Below are positions 1,039 through 12,738 of a stretch of DNA of 13,135 nt, piece by piece. How positions within the stretch are numbered: position 1 is the stretch's first letter; every line of letters begins with the position of its first letter. Source of the stretch: an uncultured Verrucomicrobia subdivision 3 bacterium (GTDB lineage: Bacteria; Verrucomicrobiota; Verrucomicrobiae; Limisphaerales; UBA11358); the NCBI GenBank assembly GCA_903847285.1, contig CAINDH010000226.1, forward strand, positions 1-13,135. The letters run 5' to 3'. The notes under the pieces are model-generated. The model did not search any database. It saw only the letters and a list, made by a program, of their open reading frames with translations, and was not told the DNA's origin. The translations under genes and the position numbers were made by a program.

Positions 1039-1689
1039 TCAATGCAAGTGGCGGATGTCCTGCGCCTCACAGAGATAGACGACTTCCTCGGCGATATTCT
1101 TAGCGTGGTCGGCAATGCGCTCTAGGCTCTTCGAGGCGACAATCCAATGTAGACAACGCGAAATGGTATCCGGATTTTCCATCATATGCTGCGCGAGGGC
1201 GGCGTGAATTTGCCTATTGAGCGCGTCCACCTCCTTGTCGCGAGGAATGATTGCGCGGGCTGCGGTAGAATCCTTCTGCACGAACGAATCGAGCGCATCC
1301 TTGACCATGGCCAACGCGAGCGTAGCCATGCGCGGTAGGTCGAGATTGATTTTTACCGGCGGTTCCAGTGTGAGGTCGCAGGAGCGCTTGGCAATCTTGG
1401 TGGCCTCGTCGCCGATGCGTTCAAGGTTTTGGGAAATCTTCATCGCCACCATAACAAGGCGGAGGTTACTGGCGAGCGGTGCCTTGGTCAGAAGCTGGAT
1501 GGCCTGCTCATCAATTTCCAACTCATAGCGGTCTATGATATCGTCATCCGCCCGCACCTTTATCGCGAGGTCGTGGTTTCGTTGCATGAGCGACTGGACG
1601 GATTCGTTGACGGCCTTTTCGGAATGGCTCGCCATCACCAAAAGTTTTTGGCGAAGGTTTTCGATGCCAGCTTCAACATGATTTTCCAT
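1039..1689 (-). CDS. phoU: Phosphate signalling and transport regulator PhoU
   Basis: PhoU is a cytoplasmic all-helical protein that links the Pst transporter to the PhoR/PhoB two-component system and represses the Pho regulon when phosphate is plentiful. The product has 216 residues, in the family range (about 210-240). It shows the two internally repeated three-helix bundles typical of PhoU, each with its metal-binding signature: LERIGDEATKIA at residues 89-100 and LERIADHAKNIAEEVVYL at 189-206. An ATG start (1687-1689) follows the pstB stop by 19 bases, so it is the last gene of a pstSCAB-phoU unit. No convincing Shine-Dalgarno sequence precedes it. The partner kinase and response regulator genes are not in the window. 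Confidence 0.97.
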   Translation of the reverse strand: MENHVEAGIENLRQKLLVMASHSEKAVNESVQSLMQRNHDLAIKVRADDDIIDRYELEIDEQAIQLLTKAPLASNLRLVMVAMKISQNLERIGDEATKIAKRSCDLTLEPPVKINLDLPRMATLALAMVKDALDSFVQKDSTAARAIIPRDKEVDALNRQIHAALAQHMMENPDTISRCLHWIVASKSLERIADHAKNIAEEVVYLCEAQDIRHLH

Positions 1690-1708: not shown

Positions 1709-2527
1709 TCAGCCGAACCGGCCAGTCACATAGTCTTCCGTGCGCTTCTGCGACGGGTTGGTGAAAATTTTTCCCGTCGACCCAAATTCCACCAGTTCAC
1801 CGATGTAAAAAAACGCCGTCTGATCCGAGATGCGCGCGGCCTGCTGCATATTGTGTGTGACGATGACAATGGTGAATTGTTTTTTCAAATCCAAAATCAA
1901 ATCTTCTACCCGTGCGGTGGCAATGGGGTCCAGTGCGCTAGCCGGTTCGTCCATCAAAATGACTTCCGGCTTTATGGCGATGGCGCGGGCAATGCAAAGC
2001 CGTTGCTGCTGACCGCCAGACAAACCGAGAGCGCTGGAGTGAAGCCGGTCTTTCACTTCGTCCCACAACGCTGCGCCCTGCAAGCTTTCCTCGATGCGCG
2101 CGTCCAAATCCGATTTGGCTTTCACCCCGTGCAACCGCAGACCGTAAGCGACGTTCTCGTAAATGGATTTCGGGAACGGATTCGATTTCTGAAACACCAT
2201 CCCCACGCGCTTGCGGAGTTCGATGACGTCCACATCTTTCGCATAGATGTCGTGGCCGCCGATTTTGAGCGTGCCTTCAATTCGCACGCCGTCAATCAGG
2301 TCATTCATGCGATTGAGGCATCGCAGCAAGGTGGACTTTCCGCAACCGCTCGGCCCGATGAAAGCAGTAACCACTTTCTCGCCAAGATTCAGAGAAATAT
2401 TCTTCAGCGCCTTGCTCGTGCCGTAGTAGAGCGAAACGTTCTCGATGGCGATGAACGGGGCGGCAGCCGCCGCTGGCACAGAGGAGTTATCTGGCGGTGC
2501 CAGTTTTGGGATTAAAGTTTCAGCCAT
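1709..2527 (-). CDS. pstB: Phosphate ABC transporter ATP-binding protein PstB
   Basis: PstB is the cytoplasmic ATPase that drives phosphate import through PstCA. The 272-residue product carries every ABC motif intact: Walker [10 protein letters not shown] (residues 58-66), Q-loop VFQKSNPFP (Gln113), signature LSGGQQQR (169-176), Walker B with D-loop [12 protein letters not shown] (190-201) and the switch His in VTHNM (His225). The PstB-typical C-terminus EDYVTGRFG is present. It is slightly longer than E. coli PstB (257 residues) because of an Ala/Pro-rich N-terminal tail of about 25 residues before the first strand [12 protein letters not shown]. It starts 24 bases after the pstA stop and ends 19 bases before phoU. 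No strong ribosome-binding site is seen. Confidence 0.98.
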
Positions 2528-2551: not shown

Positions 2552-3541
2552 TCAACTCATCGCCCGCAGTTTTTTCCGCACGCGCGCACGGATGATGATG
2601 GCCACGATATTCAGCGCGAACGTCAACATCAGCAAGACGAGCACCGTCGCGTAAAGAATCGGGCGAGTCTGCTCGATGTTCGGCGACTGCGTGGACAGCA
2701 CGAAAACATGGTAACCCAAATCCATAAATTGATCGCTTAAATGGCTCGGCAGCGACGCCATGTAATACGCCACCCCGGTGAAAAGAATCGGCGCGACCTC
2801 ACCTGCCGCGCGGCTCACGGCGAGAATACCGCCAGTCATAATGCCGGGCAACGCCTGCGGCAAAACAATTTTCAAAATAGTTTCCAGCTTTGTCGCACCC
2901 AGCGCTAGGCTGGCTTCACGCAAGCCGGGAGGAATGGCTTTTAAGGATTCTTCCGTGGCGACGATAACCACCGGCAGGGTCATCACGGCCAAGGTGAGTG
3001 ATGCCCAGATTAACGCTGGCTGCCCCCAAACGGCTTCGGAATGGTGCAACACGTCATCCAGATGTTTACCGACGAAGTTGATGAAGAAACCAAGGCCAAA
3101 CAAACCAAAGACGATGGACGGCACACCGGCGAGATTGTTTACGGCGGCACGAATGATGCGCGTGATGATTGAGGTGTTCGACGCATATTCCGTCAGGTAA
3201 ATCGCCGTGATGACACCGACGGGAATCACGAAGATGGTCATCACAATCACGCGGAAGGCTGTGCCGACAATCATCGGCAACACGCCGGTTGTTTGCGGAT
3301 CAAAAAAATCTTTTTTTGGAATGGTGGAGACGAAATGCCAGGAGAGTCCGCCCCAGCCATTGTAAATAATGTTCACCAGAATCGTGGCGAGAATGCCAAG
3401 GATGAACAGCGTGGCTAACCCGGTCAGCCCGGAGAAGAAGAATGACCAGAAATCAAATTTCTCCGCGCGAAAATTACGCGTGATACGCGCCGTATCGCCG
3501 GAATTTTCCGGCAGGTATTGACCGGGCGTCACAGTGTTCAT
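2552..3541 (-). CDS. pstA: Phosphate ABC transporter permease PstA
   Basis: PstA forms, with PstC, the inner-membrane phosphate channel. The 329-residue product has a cytoplasmic N-terminal tail of about 30 residues, a first membrane helix around residues 33-60, and the conserved permease core from GVLPMIVGTAFR onwards. The EAA coupling loop that contacts PstB lies at about 198-233 (ESLKAIPPGLREASLALGAT). The core ends with the PstA-typical RAAGEVAPILFT and a final helix near 296-318. It is about 30 residues longer than E. coli PstA (296), mainly through the N-terminal tail. Its ATG overlaps the pstC stop as ATGA (3538-3541 on the minus strand), a sign of translational coupling. Confidence 0.97.
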   Translation of the reverse strand: MNTVTPGQYLPENSGDTARITRNFRAEKFDFWSFFFSGLTGLATLFILGILATILVNIIYNGWGGLSWHFVSTIPKKDFFDPQTTGVLPMIVGTAFRVIVMTIFVIPVGVITAIYLTEYASNTSIITRIIRAAVNNLAGVPSIVFGLFGLGFFINFVGKHLDDVLHHSEAVWGQPALIWASLTLAVMTLPVVIVATEESLKAIPPGLREASLALGATKLETILKIVLPQALPGIMTGGILAVSRAAGEVAPILFTGVAYYMASLPSHLSDQFMDLGYHVFVLSTQSPNIEQTRPILYATVLVLLMLTFALNIVAIIIRARVRKKLRAMS

Positions 3542-4725
3542 CGCTTGCCCTCCAATTTGTTTTTGAAGCGATGAATCACGAAGTCGCCGACCATGTTGGA
3601 AATAAACGTGGCTGCGAAGAGCAAAGCGCCCAGCATGAAAAGAATACGATAGTGGGGCCCACCATTCACGGCTTCCGCCATTTCCGCCGCGATAGTGGTG
3701 GTGATGCTGCGGGCCGAATCAAAAACGCTCCACGACATCACGCTGGCGGAGCAGACCATCAACACAATCATCGTTTCACCAATCGCGCGGCCAAAGCCCA
3801 GCACGGCGGCGGCAAAAACTCCGGGCAACGCGGCGGGCAGAACGATTTGCCACGCGGTCTGCCAGCGCGACGCGCCGAGTGCGAGAGCGCCCTGCGTGTA
3901 AGCACGAGGCACGCTGGTAAGCGCATCTTCGGCGATGGAGAAGATCACAGGGATGACCGCAAAGCCCAGCGCGATGCCCGCGACGAAGGCATTCAGACGC
4001 GTCTCGTAACCAAAAATCTTTTGCAGCACCGTAGCCATCACGATGAGTGCAAACACGCCGATGACGACGGAGGGAATTCCCGAAAGCATTTCAATCATTG
4101 GCTTGACGGTTTCACGGACACGCGGACGGGCGAGTTGGGAAACATAAATCGCAGCGCCCACCGCCAGCGGAACGGCAAAGAACAAACCAATCAAAGTAAT
4201 TTTCAGCGTGCCGACGAAGAGCGGAATGACGTTGAATTTTTTAATCTGGCCGACAGGCTGCCAGATGTTTTCTGGCTTATCGTAACCGGTCCATTGGTGC
4301 GAACGGACAAGGTATTTTAATTCGGTCGTGTTGATGCGAGCATCGGGGTCGTTACGGAAATTTTCCGGAATTTCATTCTGCGCCTCGACTTTCACATCCA
4401 TCAGGGTGCGAAGCGTTTCCTTGTCCATTTCAGCAAACTGCTTGGGGGTGAGCTCAAGGTAGGCCTGCAATTCGGCGGGCGTGTGCTGATCCATCTCGGC
4501 GGGTGGAATGGGCTTTTGCACGAGCGCGGTGTTGACCTTGCCAAAAAAAACCGGCAGCGCCTCGCGCGCGACGAACAGAAAAATCAGCAGCACCATCGCG
4601 ATAGCTGAAAGCGAGACGAGGAAAATAAATTTCTCCGCGAGCCATTCCACCGGGCGCGCCTTGTGGCCGCGATGAATGCCAATCCAACCAGGACTGTTAG
4701 TCGAATTTTTTTCGGCGGAATTCAA
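3538..4725 (-). CDS. pstC: Phosphate ABC transporter permease PstC with long periplasmic loop
   Basis: PstC is the second channel subunit of the Pst phosphate importer. Residues 33-53 form the first membrane helix, and the permease core starts near residue 165 (NVIPLFVGTLKITLIGL). The EAA loop that meets PstB is at about 266-302 (EDALTSVPRAYTQGALALGA), followed by FGRAIGETMIVLM. At 395 residues it is much longer than E. coli PstC (319). The excess is a charged stretch of about 95 residues between helix 1 and the core (about 62-158), predicted periplasmic. The start is uncertain. An in-frame TAA lies five codons before the TTG at 4723-4725, and the first plausible alternative is GTG at 4648-4650, which is preceded by AAGG about 8 bases upstream; that shorter form still keeps the first helix. 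The gene overlaps pstA by 4 bases. Confidence 0.95.
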   Translation of the reverse strand: MNSAEKNSTNSPGWIGIHRGHKARPVEWLAEKFIFLVSLSAIAMVLLIFLFVAREALPVFFGKVNTALVQKPIPPAEMDQHTPAELQAYLELTPKQFAEMDKETLRTLMDVKVEAQNEIPENFRNDPDARINTTELKYLVRSHQWTGYDKPENIWQPVGQIKKFNVIPLFVGTLKITLIGLFFAVPLAVGAAIYVSQLARPRVRETVKPMIEMLSGIPSVVIGVFALIVMATVLQKIFGYETRLNAFVAGIALGFAVIPVIFSIAEDALTSVPRAYTQGALALGASRWQTAWQIVLPAALPGVFAAAVLGFGRAIGETMIVLMVCSASVMSWSVFDSARSITTTIAAEMAEAVNGGPHYRILFMLGALLFAATFISNMVGDFVIHRFKNKLEGKR

Positions 4726-4815: not shown

Positions 4816-5661
4816 TCAATTTCCAGCTCGCTGGGCCTTCGGCAACGGATAATAACCGACTTGTGTCACATACTTCTGGCCGGCATCGCTGCGCATCCAG
4901 TTCAAGTAGGCGGCCACTTCGCCCTTGTCTTTGGACGGGTCGAGATAGACGTAGAGGTAGCGCCAGATGGAATAGCTCTGGTTGACGACGGTTTCCTCGG
5001 TCGGCGTGATGGCCGGGGAATTTTCATCCTTCTTAATAGCGAGCAGTTTGCTGCCGCCGCCGTAAGCCGCGCCGCCGTATCCGATGGCATTTTTGTCTTT
5101 GACGACGGACTGGACGATCAGCGCGGTTCCTTGCTGGGTCTGTGCGCTAGCGGCAAAGTCGCTCCCCTTCAAGACGTGTTCCTTGAAGAACTCGTAAGTG
5201 CCGGAACTATTCTCGCGGCTGTAAACCGTGATGGGAGCATCCGCACCGCCAACATCTTTCCAGTTTTTAACTTTGCCGGTGAAGATGTCTTTCACCTGGT
5301 CGAGGGTGAGTTCCTTGACAGGATTTTCGGGGTTCACATAAACGGAAAGGCCGTCGAGCGCGACTTTGTATTCCGTGGGGCGCTTGCCATTGAACACCTT
5401 GATGCAGTTGGCGATTTCCGCCGCCTTGGCTTTGCGAGAAGCATCGCACAAATCAGTCGTCTGGTTTTGCAACGCGGCAAAACCCGTGCCAGTGCCGCCG
5501 CCGGAGACTTGAATCTTAGTTTCCTTGTGTTCGCCCATATAGACCTCAGCCCACTTCTGGGCGAGGACGACGAGGGTGTCGGAACCTTTTACTGTGATGG
5601 TTCCCGCTTGCAGATTAGCGGCGAGCGCCGCAACGGACAGGATGGCAAATAATTTTTTCAT
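4816..5661 (-). CDS. pstS: Periplasmic phosphate-binding protein PstS
   Basis: PstS captures inorganic phosphate in the periplasm and delivers it to PstCA. The 281-residue product begins with a signal peptide, MKKLFAILSVAALAANLQA, cut near residue 19. The mature protein opens with TITVKGSDTL, the phosphate-contacting start typical of the family. Other ligand-binding segments are SGGGTGTGFAAL (53-64), DLCDASRKAK (70-79) and SRENSSGTYEFF (148-159). There is no lipobox Cys, so it is a soluble periplasmic protein. It is shorter than E. coli PstS (346), as in the compact PstS subfamily. The ATG (5659-5661) lies 36 bases downstream of a Pho box, so it should be induced by phosphate starvation. No Shine-Dalgarno sequence is obvious. 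Confidence 0.97.
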   Translation of the reverse strand: MKKLFAILSVAALAANLQAGTITVKGSDTLVVLAQKWAEVYMGEHKETKIQVSGGGTGTGFAALQNQTTDLCDASRKAKAAEIANCIKVFNGKRPTEYKVALDGLSVYVNPENPVKELTLDQVKDIFTGKVKNWKDVGGADAPITVYSRENSSGTYEFFKEHVLKGSDFAASAQTQQGTALIVQSVVKDKNAIGYGGAAYGGGSKLLAIKKDENSPAITPTEETVVNQSYSIWRYLYVYLDPSKDKGEVAAYLNWMRSDAGQKYVTQVGYYPLPKAQRAGN

Positions 5662-5697
5662 AGCAGAATGTTAAACCGATTTTGTTTTCAGACGTTA

Positions 5698-5715
5698 GTT
5701 ACAATTGGGTGACAA
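5698..5715 (-). promoter_or_regulatory. Pho box upstream of pstS
   Basis: Read on the minus strand this is TTGTCACCCAATTGTAAC: two 7-base direct repeats (TTGTCAC and TTGTAAC) separated by 4 bases, the layout of the PhoB-binding Pho box (CTGTCAT-N4-CTGTCAT in E. coli). It starts at the first base after the porin stop codon and ends 36 bases before the pstS ATG, so pstS has its own phosphate-controlled promoter. A possible -10 box, CAAAAT (5679-5684 on the minus strand), lies 13 bases downstream and matches the consensus at 4 of 6 positions. It differs from the porin Pho box at one base. Confidence 0.82.
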
Positions 5716-7080
5716 TCAAAATTTCCACATCGCGTCCACCTGCATCCGGCTCATACCGCTCTGCGAGTTTGCCGGAAACTCGTTGATTAGATCGGTGGCG
5801 AACCACTTGAGCGACAGCGTAAGCGAGTCACTGGGCGAATAGGCGAACTTGACAACGTGGCCTTTGGAATTCGGGCCAGAGCCGTAGCCTACGCCCGCGC
5901 CAGAGTTAACGGGAGAATTGGCCTGACCGTAGAACGCGCCGAAATCGGAATCCGTGAGCTCTTCCCACGCCGAGTTAGCCCCGAGCCATTTGTAGGTATA
6001 GGAAACCTCCCAGGTTTTTTTCTTACCCGATTTGCCAAACGTGATGCCGGTTGACCACGCGTAGTTATCGGCACCGCTGGGCGCTCCGGGGTTGATGACG
6101 TATTCGCCGCTCAACTTGACCGGGAAGGCGCCAGTATAAAATGGTGCACTTTCGAAGTTGTAGGTCACAGAGGCATCAAGGTCCACTGGGTTGAAATGGT
6201 AAGTCAACGAGCCGTCGCCGTTGCGCGCGTTGCCCCGGTTTTGATTTGGAACCGCAGCCGTCGTGAGCGAGGTGCGGCTTATCATCGGCAAGTAAGCTAC
6301 ACCAGCACTGCTGCTCCACTTGGTGTTCCACGCGGCATCCCAGCGCGCTTGCGCACCGAACAGCCACGGATCTTTTTCATTGGAGGAAATTTCATCCAAC
6401 ACGAAGCCTCCCGCGTTCAGTTTGAGGCTGTGGACACTGTTCAACTGATATGCGAATTGCCCCGCCAATCCTTCAGGCGTGTAATCCGGATCCATAATGA
6501 GATCAGAAAGCACGAACGGATTCTCCATCTTGCCAACCGTGAAGCCGCCGGAAAATGCGCCCGTGAAAGGCGTCCACTTACCATAAGCCTGGTCGATATA
6601 AACGAGTTTCTTCGAGCCATTGTTCTGCATCGTGGTGTTGCCGGAAATCGGGTCACCCTCATTGTTTGAGCCGCCGCTAGCAGCATCACTGGAAGTAATT
6701 TTGAAACCCGCCTCAAAATTATCCAGCATCGTCACCGCGAGACCAGCACGGACGCGGTAACGCAGGCGATTGCGGTCAACGAAATTTTGGTTCTCGGAAT
6801 AAAAACCCTCAAAACGTCCGCGCACATCACCGCTGATTTTGTAGCCGCTCACCCAGTCCGGCATCCCGGTCTTAGCCTGAAGAGCGGTGCTGAAATTTTT
6901 GTCGGCTTCGTCGCGCAAATCCTTCGCTTCGGTCGACGTTAAAATTCCTTTGTCCACTAGCTTGTCAATCAGCGCGTCCGATGACTGTGCGTGAGATTGG
7001 GAAGTGAAGGCAGTTAACGCAGCCGTTCCGGCCAGCAAGGCCAATTTGGTGTTCGAGTTCTTGGTTTTGAATGGTTTCAT
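5716..7080 (-). CDS. Outer-membrane porin, Porin_5-like, Pho-linked
   Basis: The product (454 residues from the chosen start) looks like a beta-barrel porin of the 'putative porin' Porin_5 type. I chose the ATG at 7078-7080 because it gives a good signal peptide (cut after SQSHA, residue 31). The same frame is open upstream to 7188, but that extension would run through the Pho box. After the signal comes a short helical segment (ALIDKLVDKGILTSTEAKDL), then the barrel starting DVRGRFEGFYSENQNFVDRN, with the family-like stretch VGKMENPFVLSDLIMDPDY. It has alternating barrel strands and a C-terminal Phe (MQVDAMWKF), the outer-membrane assembly signal. Placement between a Pho box and pstS suggests passage of phosphate or phosphorylated compounds, like OprP or PhoE elsewhere. 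That is inference, since no OprP-type Lys/Arg ladder could be confirmed by eye. Confidence 0.88.
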   Translation of the reverse strand: MKPFKTKNSNTKLALLAGTAALTAFTSQSHAQSSDALIDKLVDKGILTSTEAKDLRDEADKNFSTALQAKTGMPDWVSGYKISGDVRGRFEGFYSENQNFVDRNRLRYRVRAGLAVTMLDNFEAGFKITSSDAASGGSNNEGDPISGNTTMQNNGSKKLVYIDQAYGKWTPFTGAFSGGFTVGKMENPFVLSDLIMDPDYTPEGLAGQFAYQLNSVHSLKLNAGGFVLDEISSNEKDPWLFGAQARWDAAWNTKWSSSAGVAYLPMISRTSLTTAAVPNQNRGNARNGDGSLTYHFNPVDLDASVTYNFESAPFYTGAFPVKLSGEYVINPGAPSGADNYAWSTGITFGKSGKKKTWEVSYTYKWLGANSAWEELTDSDFGAFYGQANSPVNSGAGVGYGSGPNSKGHVVKFAYSPSDSLTLSLKWFATDLINEFPANSQSGMSRMQVDAMWKF

Positions 7081-7128
7081 GTTGGCGTGGTTTGAAATGC
7101 GCAAACACTTTGCCGCCATTGCGTTACA

Positions 7129-7162
7129 GGAATAAGTCGCCAATGTTACAATTGTGTGACAA
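7129..7162 (-). promoter_or_regulatory. Pho box and -10 element upstream of the porin
   Basis: On the minus strand 7162-7145 reads TTGTCACACAATTGTAAC, two 7-base repeats with a 4-base spacer, as in a Pho box. After a 10-base gap comes TATTCC (7134-7129), well placed as the -10 hexamer of a PhoB-activated promoter, where the Pho box replaces the -35. A further heptamer, CTGTAAC (7129-7123), lies 22 bases (two 11-base periods) beyond the second repeat and could be an extra half-site or chance. The porin ATG is at 7080, which leaves a leader of about 40 bases. Confidence 0.82.
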
Positions 7163-8211: not shown

Positions 8212-11200
8212 TCAGGGGAATGCCACCCGGTAGAACTGGAACGGTGCGGCTGTGCTGGTCTCGTTAAACTGGATGATACCGTTCGTGCCGATGATGTTCG
8301 TCACCAGCGGAACCCAGACGATGGGCGGCGACAGATTAGTTGTCCGTTGCACGATATAGCGGTTGCTCACTGCGCCGCTTCCCGCCGCGAGCACAAACCC
8401 TGCGCCGGAATTGCTCAAAACCAACGAGGGCACAGGGACGACGTTCAGTGCGGCCAAACTGCTCGTCACGCTGCCGCCGAGATTGGTGACGATGACGGAA
8501 TAGTTTCCGGTGTGGTTCGTGGCTGCCGGAATAAACGTGAGCACGTTGGTGCGCGCGCCGGAGATGGCGCCGCCGTTCGCGACGGGCACGCCGGCTTTGA
8601 GCCATTGGTAGTTCAGCGGCGCATTGCCGGTGGCAGTGACGCTGAACGCGGCGTTGTTGCCCACGAAGACGTTGGTGTTGAGCGGTTGCACAGTGATGAC
8701 GGGCGGCGACAGCAAAGCAAACACGCCGGCGGCATTGATGGGCACATTGGTCACAAGAACTTCGAACGCGGTGAAGTCGGCGGTGCTCAAGCGGGCAAGT
8801 GGTTCGCTGGCGGTGTAAGGGCCGGTGTTCGTCTGCGTAAAGATGTAATACACCGGCGAGGTGGCGGGCTTGACGGTTATGCCGTAGCGGCTGATGCCAG
8901 TGCCGACGATGGGAAATTCCACGGTAGACCCTTCAAGGGTCCAGGCGGAGACGGGCTGGGAAACATCGGCGGTGGACCAGACGAAACAGACGCCGCCACT
9001 GATGTTAGTGGTGTAGAGATTTTCATCGTTTAAAAATCCTGGTCCGTTGTCCACGGGCAGCCCGAAGACATTGGTGACGGTGAGCACCACGACGGAACTG
9101 TTGGTGAAGCCGTAGAGATTGGAGATGACCACGCTGTAATTGCCGGCGTTGAACATGGAAACGTTCGTGAGGGTGAGCGTGGCATTCGTGGCGGCGGTGA
9201 TCGGGGCGGAATTTTTTGACCATTTATACAACAAGGGTCCGCTTCCATTTGCCGTCACAGCAAAAGCCGCATTGCCCCCTTGCAAAATGTTGGTCGAGGC
9301 CGGCTGTTGAACGATGACCGGAGCGGATTGCACACCATTCGCTGGCGACAGTGCGCCTGAAATCTGCAGATCAAAACCGGCCGAAATGTTGTTGATATAC
9401 CAACTGCCGGAACTGCTGGTGCCGCCCCAAGGCACAATGCGGAAGGTGACGTTGGTTCCCGCCGGAACATTTTGCAATGCGGTGATGCCGGTAAGATCAA
9501 TCGCAGACTGCAAATTGCCCGACGAGGAGGTCGTGGAACCCCAGGCGATCGCTGAGCCGATGTCCGTGAACGTGCCGCCGCCGATCTGGTATTGCCACAT
9601 ACCCGTGGTCGAGCCGGTGCTGCTGCGGCGGATGTTGTAGGCGGCGATGTTGGTGAATGAAACCACATAGCCAACGTTGCCGGTCACGCTGAAAGTGGCG
9701 AAGGTGTTGGCAGTGATTGACGCCGCCTCGCTGCTGGAGGTGAAGCCCGAGCCGCCCCAGGCATTGCCCGCGCCGGTAGAAGAGGTGTTCACACCTGTGC
9801 CACGCGTGAGTCCGGACACGGTGACGTTGGGAGCATTGCTCACAGCGGCGAACGGCGACGGACCGTAGTTGCCGCTTCCACCGGTCAAACCAGACATTTC
9901 CCACGCGACCAGAATCCCGCCATATGCCGCCGAGTTGGCAATCGATAGGATCGCGGGCGAACTCGTCACGCTTCCAACCAAGTTGCTGATCACCACGGTG
10001 TATGTGCCAGCATTGGTGGGATCCACATTGGCAATGGAAAAGCTAGTCGCAGTGGCTCCCGCTATGGCATTGGAATTGAAATACCATTGATATGAGAGCG
10101 GTCCGTCACCCGTGACTCCAATTGTGAAAGTTGCCGAACCACCCGGCAGCGACGCGCGATTTTGCGGCTGCGTCAGGATTATCGGCGGAATCGCCGCATT
10201 GGTGGCGTTGTAAATGACAAGCGCAAAATCCTGATCAATCGTCGGCGACTCATTGGGAACACCATCGGAATTGATGCTCGTCGCGTTTACGGTGACAATA
10301 AACGGACCGCTGACTCCGGCGGGAACAAAGACGCATTCCAAATTATTTTTCGCATCATTCGCTCCGCCGGAAACGGAATTGGATCCGCTGAAAACATTGC
10401 CCTTATAAGTGACGCTACCGACGATGACATTCAGATCCAGATTATTATTGTAAGCATTCCCGGTCGTGTTGCCCGGCGCATCCGTCCAGGCCAGCGTCAC
10501 CCGAAATGGTTTTGAATTGGTCGAAATAAAACCGGTGTTCGTGCGAGCCTGACCGCTGGCGGTGAATTTATCCACGCTCAACTGGTCACGAATCACTCTG
10601 TTAACCCCATCAAATGCGGTGCCGAGATTCACTGAGCCTAGCCCCTGCGAATTGGATGGCAGCGTGCCGCTCGCTCCCGTGCCAGTCATGTAACGCGTAG
10701 AGTTCACGAGATACGCCTTCGTCATGGCCGGGCTGGGCGGCGTGAGCGATTGATTGATAAAATACTGGCGGAGCAACGCGCATGCGCCAGCGATGCCCGG
10801 CGTGGAATGGCTCGTGCCGGAACTAGCCGTATAAAATTGCTGGCCGCTGCTAGGAAAATAACTGGAACCACCGGTGCCACCGCTCACACCCGTGCCGTCA
10901 AAACAGGCGATGGCCGTGCCCGTCGCCGATGGGTTCGCCGCCTGCGCCACGCCGCCACTGACGTGCGTGCCGGGCGCACAAAGATCCGGCTTAAACCGAC
11001 CGTCCGAACATGGTCCGCGGCTCGAAAAACTGATGACGTCATTCGCGCTGTCCGCACCAGTATCAGCAACGCCGCTGGCATCAGAGCCACCGAATGGCTG
11101 CACGTTTTCCGCCGCGCCGACACAGATGATATTTTTTCCAGTGCCAGGTGAACCAACGGTGGATGCGCCGGAACCGGCGTTACCCGCCGCGAATACGAAA

Positions 11201-12606
11201 ACCATTTCCTGATTGCCGGCATTCGGAACGGCGGAGCCGCTTGGCTGCGCATCACGGACGAGTGCGTCGTAATTTTGCGCGTCGGCATCGTAAGCACCCG
11301 CGGTGTCCGCGCCCCAACTGTTGTTGCTCACGCGTGCGCCGTTGTTATAGGCGCGCGACGCCAAGTTGTCATAATTTGGCGAGGTGAAATTCGTCACGTC
11401 AAAAATCACCGACGAACCGACGCGCACAAATGGACAAATGCCCAAGCCATAGTGAAAGCCACTGCCATCAGCAAAGGGAAAGCCAGTGAGGTCGTCGTAG
11501 CCGCCGATGATGTGGGCGTTGAGATTGCCGTGTCCGTCGCAGCCTTGCAACGTGCTGCCGGGATTCGGCGTGCCTTCCAGGCGATTGTAAGCCACGCGGC
11601 TAGCGAGCGTGTTGGTGCCGCCAAGGTGCAGGCCGAAGTGATTGGGCGACGTCGTGCCGTTATCAATGCCGCTATCCGTCACGTCCACGACGAAACCCGA
11701 CGCATCGAATTGCGCCTGGGTAAAACCTTTGCCCGTTAGCCACGCGAGGTAGCCGGGGCCGCTCGGCGAATTGCCGGAAATATTTCCCGCCATGATCTGC
11801 GCCTGCCGTTCGCAGAACTTTTTGCGCGGAAAATACGGCTGGATGGAAACCACGTCGGCATTCGTCGCCAGTTCGGCAAGTTTTTCTGGCGGCAGCTCCA
11901 CGAAGACATTGCGGTAACCAAGCGTGCGCGACTCGCGTTCGATTGGCGCAAGCTTAAGGGTGTCCACTTGCGCGAGCGTGTTACTGTTCGCGAAAGAATC
12001 ATCCACGAGTTGAATCGCAAACGCCGTTCCCGGCCAATGCGCCTGACCGAGCGCGTTCGTGAGGCGCGCGGTAGGATTGACTTTCCAATCGTCCGCGTAA
12101 GTGCCTTCCCATTGCACCACGGCGTTGGTTCCCGCCCATGTTTGCGCGGCGGCTAGCGCAGCGGCATCGCCGTAAACGAGAAATGTGTTCTGCGGAATAT
12201 AGGCAATAATTTTCACGCCCGTCGCCACCAATTCCGCGCGCCATTCCGGTTTCACCGGTGCGGCGAATTGAACCAGATGCAGACCCTTGCCGCGAAAACT
12301 GCCCCGCGCCTTGCGCAACGATTTAGTAGCTGAAGTGCGCGTGTCCACGGCACCAGCGTGTAGCTCGATAAAATTTTCCGTGTCGACTGATTCAACCTTC
12401 CCCTGCTCTTTCGCCATCGCCAAAGCGGTGGCTTCTACAACTTGAAATGTGCCATAGTCGGCGACCAGTTTTCCGCCATCGGCAATCAGCCGCTGCGTGG
12501 CGGCAGTATCATGGCTGCGGATTTTCTCAGCGTGCGTGGCGGGCGTAAACGCCAGCACAGCGTAAATTGAAATGATTTTAATCCAAGACACGGTTACGGG
12601 CTTCAT
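8212..12606 (-). CDS. Secreted subtilisin-like (S8, KP-43-type) protease with three Ig-like domains
   Basis: This is a predicted exported serine endopeptidase of 1464 residues. The ATG at 12604-12606 gives a signal peptide cut after ATHA (residue 26); an upstream in-frame start would bury it. Residues 27-270 look like a propeptide. The S8 catalytic domain spans about 290-670, with Asp311 (VDVTDSGID), His359 (DGHGNLNAHIIGG), oxyanion Asn476 (FAAGNAG) and Ser599 (GTSHSTP, a variant of GTSMATP). Residues 675-803 resemble the C-terminal beta-barrel of KP-43-like proteases (LAWTDAPG ... NNNLDLNV). Ig-like domains follow at about 807-891, 1096-1178 and 1301-1390. Between the first two lies a Gly/Ser-rich beta-sandwich region (898-1084), and between the last two an unrecognised region (1183-1298). 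The end (1392-1464) is a module shared with the neighbouring protein. No PEP-CTERM, LPXTG or barrel anchor is seen. It probably degrades extracellular protein. Confidence 0.93.
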   Translation of the reverse strand: MKPVTVSWIKIISIYAVLAFTPATHAEKIRSHDTAATQRLIADGGKLVADYGTFQVVEATALAMAKEQGKVESVDTENFIELHAGAVDTRTSATKSLRKARGSFRGKGLHLVQFAAPVKPEWRAELVATGVKIIAYIPQNTFLVYGDAAALAAAQTWAGTNAVVQWEGTYADDWKVNPTARLTNALGQAHWPGTAFAIQLVDDSFANSNTLAQVDTLKLAPIERESRTLGYRNVFVELPPEKLAELATNADVVSIQPYFPRKKFCERQAQIMAGNISGNSPSGPGYLAWLTGKGFTQAQFDASGFVVDVTDSGIDNGTTSPNHFGLHLGGTNTLASRVAYNRLEGTPNPGSTLQGCDGHGNLNAHIIGGYDDLTGFPFADGSGFHYGLGICPFVRVGSSVIFDVTNFTSPNYDNLASRAYNNGARVSNNSWGADTAGAYDADAQNYDALVRDAQPSGSAVPNAGNQEMVFVFAAGNAGSGASTVGSPGTGKNIICVGAAENVQPFGGSDASGVADTGADSANDVISFSSRGPCSDGRFKPDLCAPGTHVSGGVAQAANPSATGTAIACFDGTGVSGGTGGSSYFPSSGQQFYTASSGTSHSTPGIAGACALLRQYFINQSLTPPSPAMTKAYLVNSTRYMTGTGASGTLPSNSQGLGSVNLGTAFDGVNRVIRDQLSVDKFTASGQARTNTGFISTNSKPFRVTLAWTDAPGNTTGNAYNNNLDLNVIVGSVTYKGNVFSGSNSVSGGANDAKNNLECVFVPAGVSGPFIVTVNATSINSDGVPNESPTIDQDFALVIYNATNAAIPPIILTQPQNRASLPGGSATFTIGVTGDGPLSYQWYFNSNAIAGATATSFSIANVDPTNAGTYTVVISNLVGSVTSSPAILSIANSAAYGGILVAWEMSGLTGGSGNYGPSPFAAVSNAPNVTVSGLTRGTGVNTSSTGAGNAWGGSGFTSSSEAASITANTFATFSVTGNVGYVVSFTNIAAYNIRRSSTGSTTGMWQYQIGGGTFTDIGSAIAWGSTTSSSGNLQSAIDLTGITALQNVPAGTNVTFRIVPWGGTSSSGSWYINNISAGFDLQISGALSPANGVQSAPVIVQQPASTNILQGGNAAFAVTANGSGPLLYKWSKNSAPITAATNATLTLTNVSMFNAGNYSVVISNLYGFTNSSVVVLTVTNVFGLPVDNGPGFLNDENLYTTNISGGVCFVWSTADVSQPVSAWTLEGSTVEFPIVGTGISRYGITVKPATSPVYYIFTQTNTGPYTASEPLARLSTADFTAFEVLVTNVPINAAGVFALLSPPVITVQPLNTNVFVGNNAAFSVTATGNAPLNYQWLKAGVPVANGGAISGARTNVLTFIPAATNHTGNYSVIVTNLGGSVTSSLAALNVVPVPSLVLSNSGAGFVLAAGSGAVSNRYIVQRTTNLSPPIVWVPLVTNIIGTNGIIQFNETSTAAPFQFYRVAFP

Positions 12607-12641
12607 GATTTCTGATTCTAAAGTTTTCCTACTGGGTCCAT

Positions 12642-12678
12642 TCTCCGAAACACAGCGGAGATTAAAAAGTTTTTTTAA
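12642..12678 (-). promoter_or_regulatory. AT-rich leader with two palindromes upstream of the protease
   Basis: On the minus strand a palindrome of A and T tracts (TTAAAAA/TTTTTAA, 12662-12678) is followed by a hairpin TCTCCG-N8-CGGAGA (12642-12661), ending 35 bases before the protease ATG. The sequence TTTAAT (12667-12662 on the minus strand) could be a -10 box, but no good -35 pairs with it. The protease promoter most likely lies here, between this element and the upstream terminator, though no transcription start can be fixed. Confidence 0.35.
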
Positions 12679-12715
12679 GAAAATTTGGCGCGAACCGGTT
12701 TTGGCGGTTGGCGCC
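12675..12715 (-). terminator. Rho-independent terminator of the upstream secreted-protein gene
   Basis: On the minus strand GGCGC (12715-12711) and AACCG (12709-12705) pair with CGGTT (12697-12693) and GCGCC (12691-12687), giving ten pairs with one C-C mismatch and a 7-base loop. AAATTTTCTT follows immediately. It begins 23 bases after the stop codon of the upstream gene, so that gene and the protease are probably separate transcription units. Confidence 0.65.
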
Positions 12716-12738
12716 GTAACACTCCACCTCAAACATTT

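What the first reader, a model, noticed from the sequence alone, without database searches (positions are those of the whole stretch)
5698..7162. Two near-identical Pho boxes mark the porin and pstS as a phosphate-starvation regulon
The minus strand carries TTGTCACACAATTGTAAC ahead of the porin and TTGTCACCCAATTGTAAC ahead of pstS, identical at 17 of 18 positions though about 1.4 kb apart. Both keep the 7-4-7 direct-repeat layout of PhoB sites. The gene context (pst) fits, and they give a candidate Pho-box consensus for this poorly studied lineage.
Basis: partly seen in the sequence, partly recalled or inferred. Interest (0 to 1): 0.72.

Follow-up and report, generated by a model that had tools for sequence, protein, structure and literature searches.

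The report
Phosphate-starvation switches in uncultured Verrucomicrobiota
Two short repeated DNA sites in front of an outer-membrane pore gene and a phosphate-uptake gene look like genuine docking sites for a phosphate-starvation regulator, and the same code marks phosphate genes in related uncultured bacteria.

Summary
Confirmed and extended. The two 18-mers lie at window 7162-7145 and 5715-5698 (minus strand); none of 200 dinucleotide shuffles gave two matches. They behave as PhoB-type Pho boxes. The porin site starts a four-unit array with 11-bp spacing, found ahead of 48 of 54 relatives' porins against 1 of 1832 control segments. The pstS site abuts the porin stop codon; such a box precedes 42 of 78 relatives' pstS genes against 22 of 2872 controls. 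In 12 relatives' genomes the motif occurs 61 times against 10 for the reversed pattern. I assign 46 of the 61, largely by eye, to porin/pst genes, phoB (12 of 12 genomes), polyphosphate kinase, a phosphoesterase, a prepilin plus acid-phosphatase operon and a small cyclic-nucleotide-domain protein. The relatives encode a PhoB-like regulator with a recognition helix very close to E. coli's. The kind is classical; the consensus for this lineage, the promoter layout and the extra candidate members did not appear in the papers I could search. PhoB binding and phosphate control are inferred; the window's own genome is not held.

The parts
7145..7162 (-). Pho box ahead of the porin, units 1 and 2 (TTGTCAC ACAA TTGTAAC)
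   Evidence: box in 53 of 55 porin-upstream regions incl. the window
7123..7140 (-). Units 3 (GCGACTT, diverged, 7140-7134) and 4 (CTGTAAC, 7129-7123) of the four-unit porin array
   Evidence: four-unit array in 48 of 54 relatives vs 1 of 1832 control segments, and once in the window; column conservation
7107..7112 (-). Putative -10 hexamer of the porin promoter (CAAAGT), 10 nt after unit 4
   Evidence: A at array position 51 and T at 55 in 42 of the 48 relatives with an array; same 10-nt gap as E. coli phoA; prediction
5716..7080 (-). Porin gene (454 aa, PF16930 Porin_5; predicted beta-barrel with about 16 long strands)
5698..5715 (-). Pho box ahead of pstS (TTGTCAC CCAA TTGTAAC), abutting the porin stop codon
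   Evidence: box in 42 of 78 pstS-upstream regions vs 22 of 2872 controls
5668..5673 (-). Putative -10 hexamer of the pstS promoter (TAACAT), 6 nt before the ATG, suggesting a leaderless or nearly leaderless mRNA
   Evidence: a [TC]AnnnT hexamer at +39 to +43 with 6-8 nt to the ATG in 16 of 27 short-leader sites incl. the window; prediction
4816..5661 (-). pstS (TIGR02136, above cutoff)
3538..4725 (-). pstC (TIGR02138, above cutoff)
2552..3541 (-). pstA (TIGR00974, above cutoff)
1709..2527 (-). pstB (TIGR00972, above cutoff)
1039..1689 (-). phoU (TIGR02135, above cutoff)

Best explanation
The two sites are operators of a PhoB-type response regulator. Under phosphate limitation a PhoR-like kinase phosphorylates PhoB (known pathway, inferred here). 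PhoB binds head-to-tail on 11-bp units of the form (T/A)(T/C)GTCAC NNAA NNGTAAC and recruits RNA polymerase to a -10 lying 10 nt beyond the last unit at the porin. At pstS and phoB the -10-like hexamer fits about 11-12 nt beyond a degenerate last unit. The porin promoter carries four units; pstS has its own second promoter directly behind the porin stop codon. So outer-membrane entry (porin) and inner-membrane uptake (PstSCAB-PhoU) are switched on together, with extra, separately driven pstS. Shown: motif, arrays, conservation, enrichment in relatives, and a PhoB-like regulator in relatives with an array ahead of its own gene. Inferred: binding, phosphate dependence, start sites, and such a regulator in the window's own genome.
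For: Sites real and non-random. pstS-upstream box in 42 of 78 relatives vs 22 of 2872 control segments; porin box in 53 of 55 regions incl. the window. Four-unit array 48 of 54 vs 1 of 1832. Of 55 porin-pst loci incl. the window, 28 have both boxes, 25 only the porin box, 1 only the pstS box, 1 neither. 61 vs 10 control matches in 12 genomes; downstream genes. Three-unit pattern 22 vs 0 in 58 genomes, 17 of them with a match. Residues R176, W184, R193, T194, H198, R200, R201 and R203 of E. coli PhoB identical in all 18 PhoB-like proteins aligned (contact roles recalled). PhoR-like kinase after phoB in the 3 loci scanned. Porin -10 gap equals that of E. coli phoA, 10 nt.
Against: No binding or expression data. 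Window's own genome not held. The PhoB-like proteins score best with TIGR02154 but below its cutoff (247.6-251.8 vs 296.2 bits in 4 scanned), and the kinases fall below the PnpS and PhoR cutoffs, with PnpS and WalK ahead of PhoR. 36 of 78 pstS genes have no box within 200 bp; 25 of those loci keep the porin box. 15 of 61 genome-wide matches are at other places, some inside coding sequence, near the control level of 10. 41 of 58 order genomes have no three-unit match. The four-unit rule was written after seeing the porin set, so only its control is independent. Related MAGs share ancestry, so species counts are not independent.
Confidence: 0.9

Rival explanations
1. The sites are operators of another OmpR-family regulator (for example a WalR-, MtrA- or BaeR-like one) that also uses tandem repeats, not a phosphate regulator.
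For: The regulator behind the phoB-type array scores below the PhoB equivalog cutoff; YycF/WalR, MtrA and BaeR models also match it well, and the kinase's second-best model is WalK.
Against: TIGR02154 PhoB is the best NCBIfam match in all 4 proteins scanned; targets are phosphate genes and phoB itself; the recognition helix matches E. coli PhoB closely (not compared with WalR, MtrA or BaeR).
Confidence: 0.07
2. The porin-side site is one arm of a terminator-like hairpin after the SpoU-type methylase gene (TTGTGACAA about 10 nt before TTGTCACA), so its match to the pstS site is a coincidence.
For: The window has an inverted copy of the first unit just upstream.
Against: By eye, the upstream arm is not kept among the 55 aligned porin promoters while the direct-repeat units are; the pstS copy has no such arm.
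Confidence: 0.01
3. Chance similarity or a recent local duplication of a short sequence.
For: The two copies differ at one base only.
Against: 0 of 200 shuffles gave two matches; both sites are conserved in relatives and differ in form (four units at the porin, two clear units at pstS).
Confidence: 0.005

Closest known systems
E. coli Pho box / PhoB operators (phoA, phoB)
   Same: 7-bp units every 11 bp with a GT(C/A)A core; 10 nt from the last unit to the -10 at the porin as in phoA; PhoB recognition helix nearly identical; an array ahead of phoB itself
   Different: unit consensus (T/A)(T/C)GTCAC then NNGTAAC rather than CTGTCAT; porin arrays have a consistently diverged third unit, CCGnCnT; V197 is T in 18 of 18 PhoB-like proteins; the pstS -10-like hexamer at +41 lies 23 nt past the two clear units
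Pseudomonas OprP/OprO phosphate porins in the Pho regulon (recalled)
   Same: a porin predicted to be phosphate-starvation induced and linked to pst
   Different: this porin matches only PF16930; best solved fold match is Veillonella OmpM1 at 13-15% identity; phosphate selectivity untested
PlcP lipid-remodelling phosphoesterase with Pho boxes in marine bacteria (PMC4796936, passages seen)
   Same: one relative (G009, L091) has a Pho box 212 nt upstream of a calcineurin-like phosphoesterase with weak similarity to UDP-2,3-diacylglucosamine diphosphatases
   Different: its identity as PlcP was not tested; the resemblance is recalled

Membership tests
Pho box (PhoB operator) | two 7-nt direct repeats with 4 nt between, i.e. 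11-nt units (definition in passages of PMC4415409) | tested here: met
   both window sites; four units in the porin array
Pho box (PhoB operator) | conserved ahead of phosphate-uptake genes in relatives | tested here: met
   53 of 55 porins incl. the window, 42 of 78 pstS, vs 22 of 2872 controls
Pho box (PhoB operator) | genome-wide enrichment ahead of phosphate genes | tested here: met
   in relatives: 61 vs 10 control in 12 genomes, 46 of 61 assigned largely by eye; 22 vs 0 in 58 genomes. Not testable in the window's own genome
Pho box (PhoB operator) | bound by phosphorylated PhoB | not testable with these tools
   no binding data; only recognition-helix conservation
Pho regulon | induction under phosphate limitation | not testable with these tools
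   no expression data
PhoB (TIGR02154 equivalog) | score above the curated cutoff of 296.2 bits | tested here: not met
   best NCBIfam match in all 4 scanned but 247.6-251.8 bits; therefore called PhoB-like
PhoB | receiver plus winged-helix domain and E. coli recognition-helix residues | tested here: met
   PF00072 and PF00486 in the one protein scanned with Pfam; of 14 positions compared, 12 identical in 18 of 18, V197 is T in all, Q178 varies
Phosphate-selective porin (OprP/OprO type) | match to a phosphate-selective porin family or fold | tested here: not met
   Pfam gives only PF16930; no PDB sequence match up to E=1; among the 50 fold matches listed the best are OmpM1 and OprB and no OprP/OprO is named

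The most novel reading that the evidence does not exclude
Verrucomicrobiota of this order run a phosphate-starvation programme that includes a surface export module: one Pho-controlled operon encoding a prepilin-like protein with a PAP2/PhoC-like acid phosphatase, in most loci backed by a second, oppositely directed array that serves a divergent large secreted protein, plus a small cyclic-nucleotide-domain protein. The pstS mRNA is leaderless, and the diverged third unit of the four-unit promoters is a conserved functional element rather than decay.
Probability: 0.35. Interest if true: 0.6.

Novelty: new member of a known kind. Interest (0 to 1): 0.42.

Why it matters
It gives a testable Pho-box consensus and promoter layout for a large uncultured lineage (relatives titled Limisphaerales / Verrucomicrobia subdivision 3), so phosphate-stress genes can be predicted in metagenomes where no experiment is possible. 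It already points at candidates outside the classical Pho set: a prepilin-acid phosphatase operon (phosphatase found in 9 of 12 genomes; array upstream of the prepilin in 8 of 9 by score, and a partial one by eye in the ninth) and a cyclic-nucleotide-domain protein (5 of 12 genomes; box ahead of all 5).

Tried and rejected
Hairpin or terminator reading of the porin-side site: its upstream arm is not kept in relatives, judged by eye. E. coli-like spacing at pstS from the two clear units alone: the -10-like hexamer at +41 lies 23 nt past them, so I fall back on a degenerate third unit, which is an inference. Phylum-wide scan: 12 matches vs 0 control in 96 genomes, 10 genomes with a match, but only two matches (L164, L165) lie ahead of ORFs that look like this porin, and the rest are unassigned or repeat-like, so I claim the code only for the window's relatives and the one order sampled. 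Three of the 22 order-wide matches are copies of one repeat in G020. Phosphate selectivity of the porin: no support by family or fold.

Rows dropped before counts. Of 80 loci, L071 was left out because its match starts at base 1, and L061 for too little upstream sequence, leaving 78 relatives for pstS. For the porin, 14 of 79 loci had no ORF of 300 codons ending near pstS (several contigs end there), 7 upstream ORFs were not treated as this porin (no or marginal blastp match), and 4 porin starts were unclear (L006, L010, L020, L057), leaving 54 relatives plus the window. The -10 analysis at pstS covers 27 sites with short leaders out of 43 with a box and an ATG; the other 16 were only printed. 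L082 (contig ends inside the gene) and L138 were left out of the PhoB alignment, so 18 of 20 phoB loci are in it. Genome-wide work used 12 of the 80 relatives. The box score was tuned on these same pstS loci, and the four-unit rule and the looser unit score were written after seeing porin arrays; the control segments and the background rate (0.14 per kb and strand for the looser score) carry the weight. The assignment of 46 of 61 hits was made from ORF translations and positions, with Pfam scans of representatives only.

Full report
What is there. The window carries, on the minus strand, a porin gene followed by pstS, pstC, pstA, pstB and phoU; each of the five pst/pho genes matches its NCBIfam model above the curated cutoff. 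Upstream lie a SpoU-type rRNA methylase and a subtilase-Ig protein; nadA is on the other strand at the far end. The ten closest pstS relatives (76-86% identity in the best segment) come from MAGs titled Limisphaerales, Verrucomicrobiia or Verrucomicrobia subdivision 3. The window's own genome is not held.

Observation. The pstS box begins at the base after the porin stop codon. The porin box is only the first half of an array: TTGTCACACAA TTGTAACATTG GCGACTTATTC CTGTAACGCAA, four units at 11-bp spacing, starting 82 nt from the porin ATG.

Conservation. From 80 pstS loci, a box of at least 12 of 14 matched positions lies within 200 bp upstream of pstS in 42 of 78, against 22 of 2872 control segments from the same loci. 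Ahead of the porin, 53 of 55 regions (window included) reach that score within 260 bp; 15 of 1832 control segments of 260 bp do. The full four-unit form with a diverged third unit is in 48 of 54 relatives and 1 of 1832 controls. Of 55 loci scored at both places, window included, 28 have both boxes, 25 only the porin box, 1 only the pstS box and 1 neither. So the porin promoter is the stable one, and a separate pstS promoter is common in the window's closest relatives.

Promoter layout. In the porin set the first strongly conserved columns past the array are A at 51 and T at 55, a CAnnnT-like hexamer starting 10 nt after unit 4, with both bases in 42 of the 48 arrays. In E. coli K-12 phoA the box is also followed by 10 nt and then TATAGT (sequence; its role as -10 is recalled). 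At pstS, 27 sites with short leaders were examined, window included: 17 have a [TC]AnnnT hexamer exactly at +41 from the box start; 16 have one at +39 to +43 with 6-8 nt to the ATG, 5 with 11-17 nt, 2 only at +50 and 4 none. The 6-8 nt class predicts a leaderless or nearly leaderless mRNA, if the first in-frame ATG is the true start. At phoB, in 12 aligned promoters, conserved C62, A63 and T67 past the array suggest a -10 there too. These start sites are predictions.

Genome-wide. The two-unit pattern occurs 61 times in 12 relatives' genomes, against 10 for the same pattern read backwards. I fetched the 42 matches outside the main pst locus (39 regions), read the downstream ORFs and scanned representatives. 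My assignment of the 61: 19 at the porin-pst locus (by position and sequence), 12 ahead of phoB (one in each genome; in L082 the contig ends inside the gene), 2 second porins, 1 second pstS, 1 ahead of a second pstC, 1 polyphosphate kinase, 1 calcineurin-like phosphoesterase, 5 at a small cyclic-nucleotide-domain protein (4 genes), 4 at a prepilin plus PAP2 operon, and 15 others, near the control level. One of the 15 (L113) is the oppositely directed array at the prepilin locus of G008. A stricter three-unit pattern in 58 genomes sampled from the order of G009 (order name not told) gave 22 matches in 17 genomes against 0: 8 phoB (2 scanned, the rest by translation), 3 PhoU (2 scanned), 2 DUF47/PhoU_div (one at and one just below the Pfam cutoff), 2 registers of one porin array, 1 pstS, and 6 others including 3 copies of one repeat. 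In 96 genomes across the phylum it gave 12 in 10 genomes against 0, few of them assignable.

Out-of-sample checks. Searching by protein instead of motif, the cyclic-nucleotide-domain protein is in 5 of 12 genomes; the one not found by motif, in G003, also has a box directly upstream (L145). The PAP2 phosphatase is in 9 of 12. Four of these loci had been found by motif ahead of the prepilin. Of the other five, four have an array reaching the looser unit score 97-128 nt or so upstream of the prepilin FTLIELL motif (L151, L153, L154, L155); the fifth (L150) does not reach it but shows units 2, 3 and 4 in register by eye. So 8 of 9 pass the score. Arrays on the opposite strand lie within 500 nt in 6 of the 9 (L083, L086, L151, L153, L154, L155). 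A divergent gene is visible in L083, L086, L119 and L151 and, through L113, in G008; the L083 one encodes an Ig-domain protein. In L154 and L155 the divergent gene was not checked.

Regulator. The protein behind the phoB array has a receiver and winged-helix domain and scores best with the PhoB model, but below its cutoff in all 4 scanned, so I call it PhoB-like. Of 14 positions compared with E. coli PhoB, 12 are identical in 18 of 18; V197 is T in 18 of 18 and Q178 varies (contact roles recalled). A histidine kinase follows in the three loci scanned; its best models are PnpS, WalK and PhoR, all below cutoff.

Porin. The predicted model (mean pLDDT 76, 17 sequences) is a beta-barrel with about 16 long strands and a low-confidence helical N-terminus. 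The best solved match is OmpM1 of Veillonella (TM 0.51-0.54 by query, 13-15% identity). Phosphate selectivity is neither supported nor excluded.

Literature. Six searches of the held open-access library listed no paper whose title or abstract start describes Pho boxes in Verrucomicrobiota; only 20 of 201 papers were listed. PMC4796936 (passages) found putative Pho boxes in PlcP gene clusters and a PlcP in a verrucomicrobium, so a predicted box in one verrucomicrobium may lie in that work; I did not see its tables. I also saw passages of PMC4415409 and PMC7593963. Many subscription papers and preprints are not held, so absence in print is not shown.

Verdict. The kind of system is classical. 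What is added is a consensus for this lineage, the four-unit porin promoter with its diverged third unit, a second promoter for pstS, and a short list of candidate regulon members to test.

Noticed in passing
L083, L086, L109, L119, L150, L151, L153, L154, L155: A prepilin-like gene followed by a PAP2/PhoC-like acid phosphatase; a Pho array lies upstream in 8 of 9 by score, and 6 of 9 also have an array on the opposite strand nearby.
   Followed up: partly
L094, L099, L104, L107, L145: A small (about 120 aa) cyclic-nucleotide-binding-domain protein with a Pho box just upstream, in 5 of 5 homologues found among 12 genomes; four begin MNPA(D/E)LF.
   Followed up: partly
L121:1688-2779: PhoU domains fused to a low-molecular-weight phosphatase/arsenate-reductase-like domain, behind a three-unit Pho array.
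   Followed up: no
window 5661-5673 and relatives' pstS promoters: A -10-like hexamer sits 6-8 nt before the pstS ATG in 16 of 27 short-leader sites, suggesting a leaderless pstS mRNA.
   Followed up: partly
L031, L038, L047, L051, L068, L077, L078: Public records titled Methylacidimicrobium, Akkermansia muciniphila or Proteobacteria whose pstS is 66-72% identical to the window's; the titles may be wrong.
   Followed up: no
L136, L139, L141 (genome G020): A dispersed repeat with 11-bp GTAAC spacing that mimics a Pho array.
   Followed up: no
window 8212-12732: A 1506-aa ORF with a subtilase domain and Ig domains near the phosphate locus; the window holds no further match to the box.
   Followed up: no
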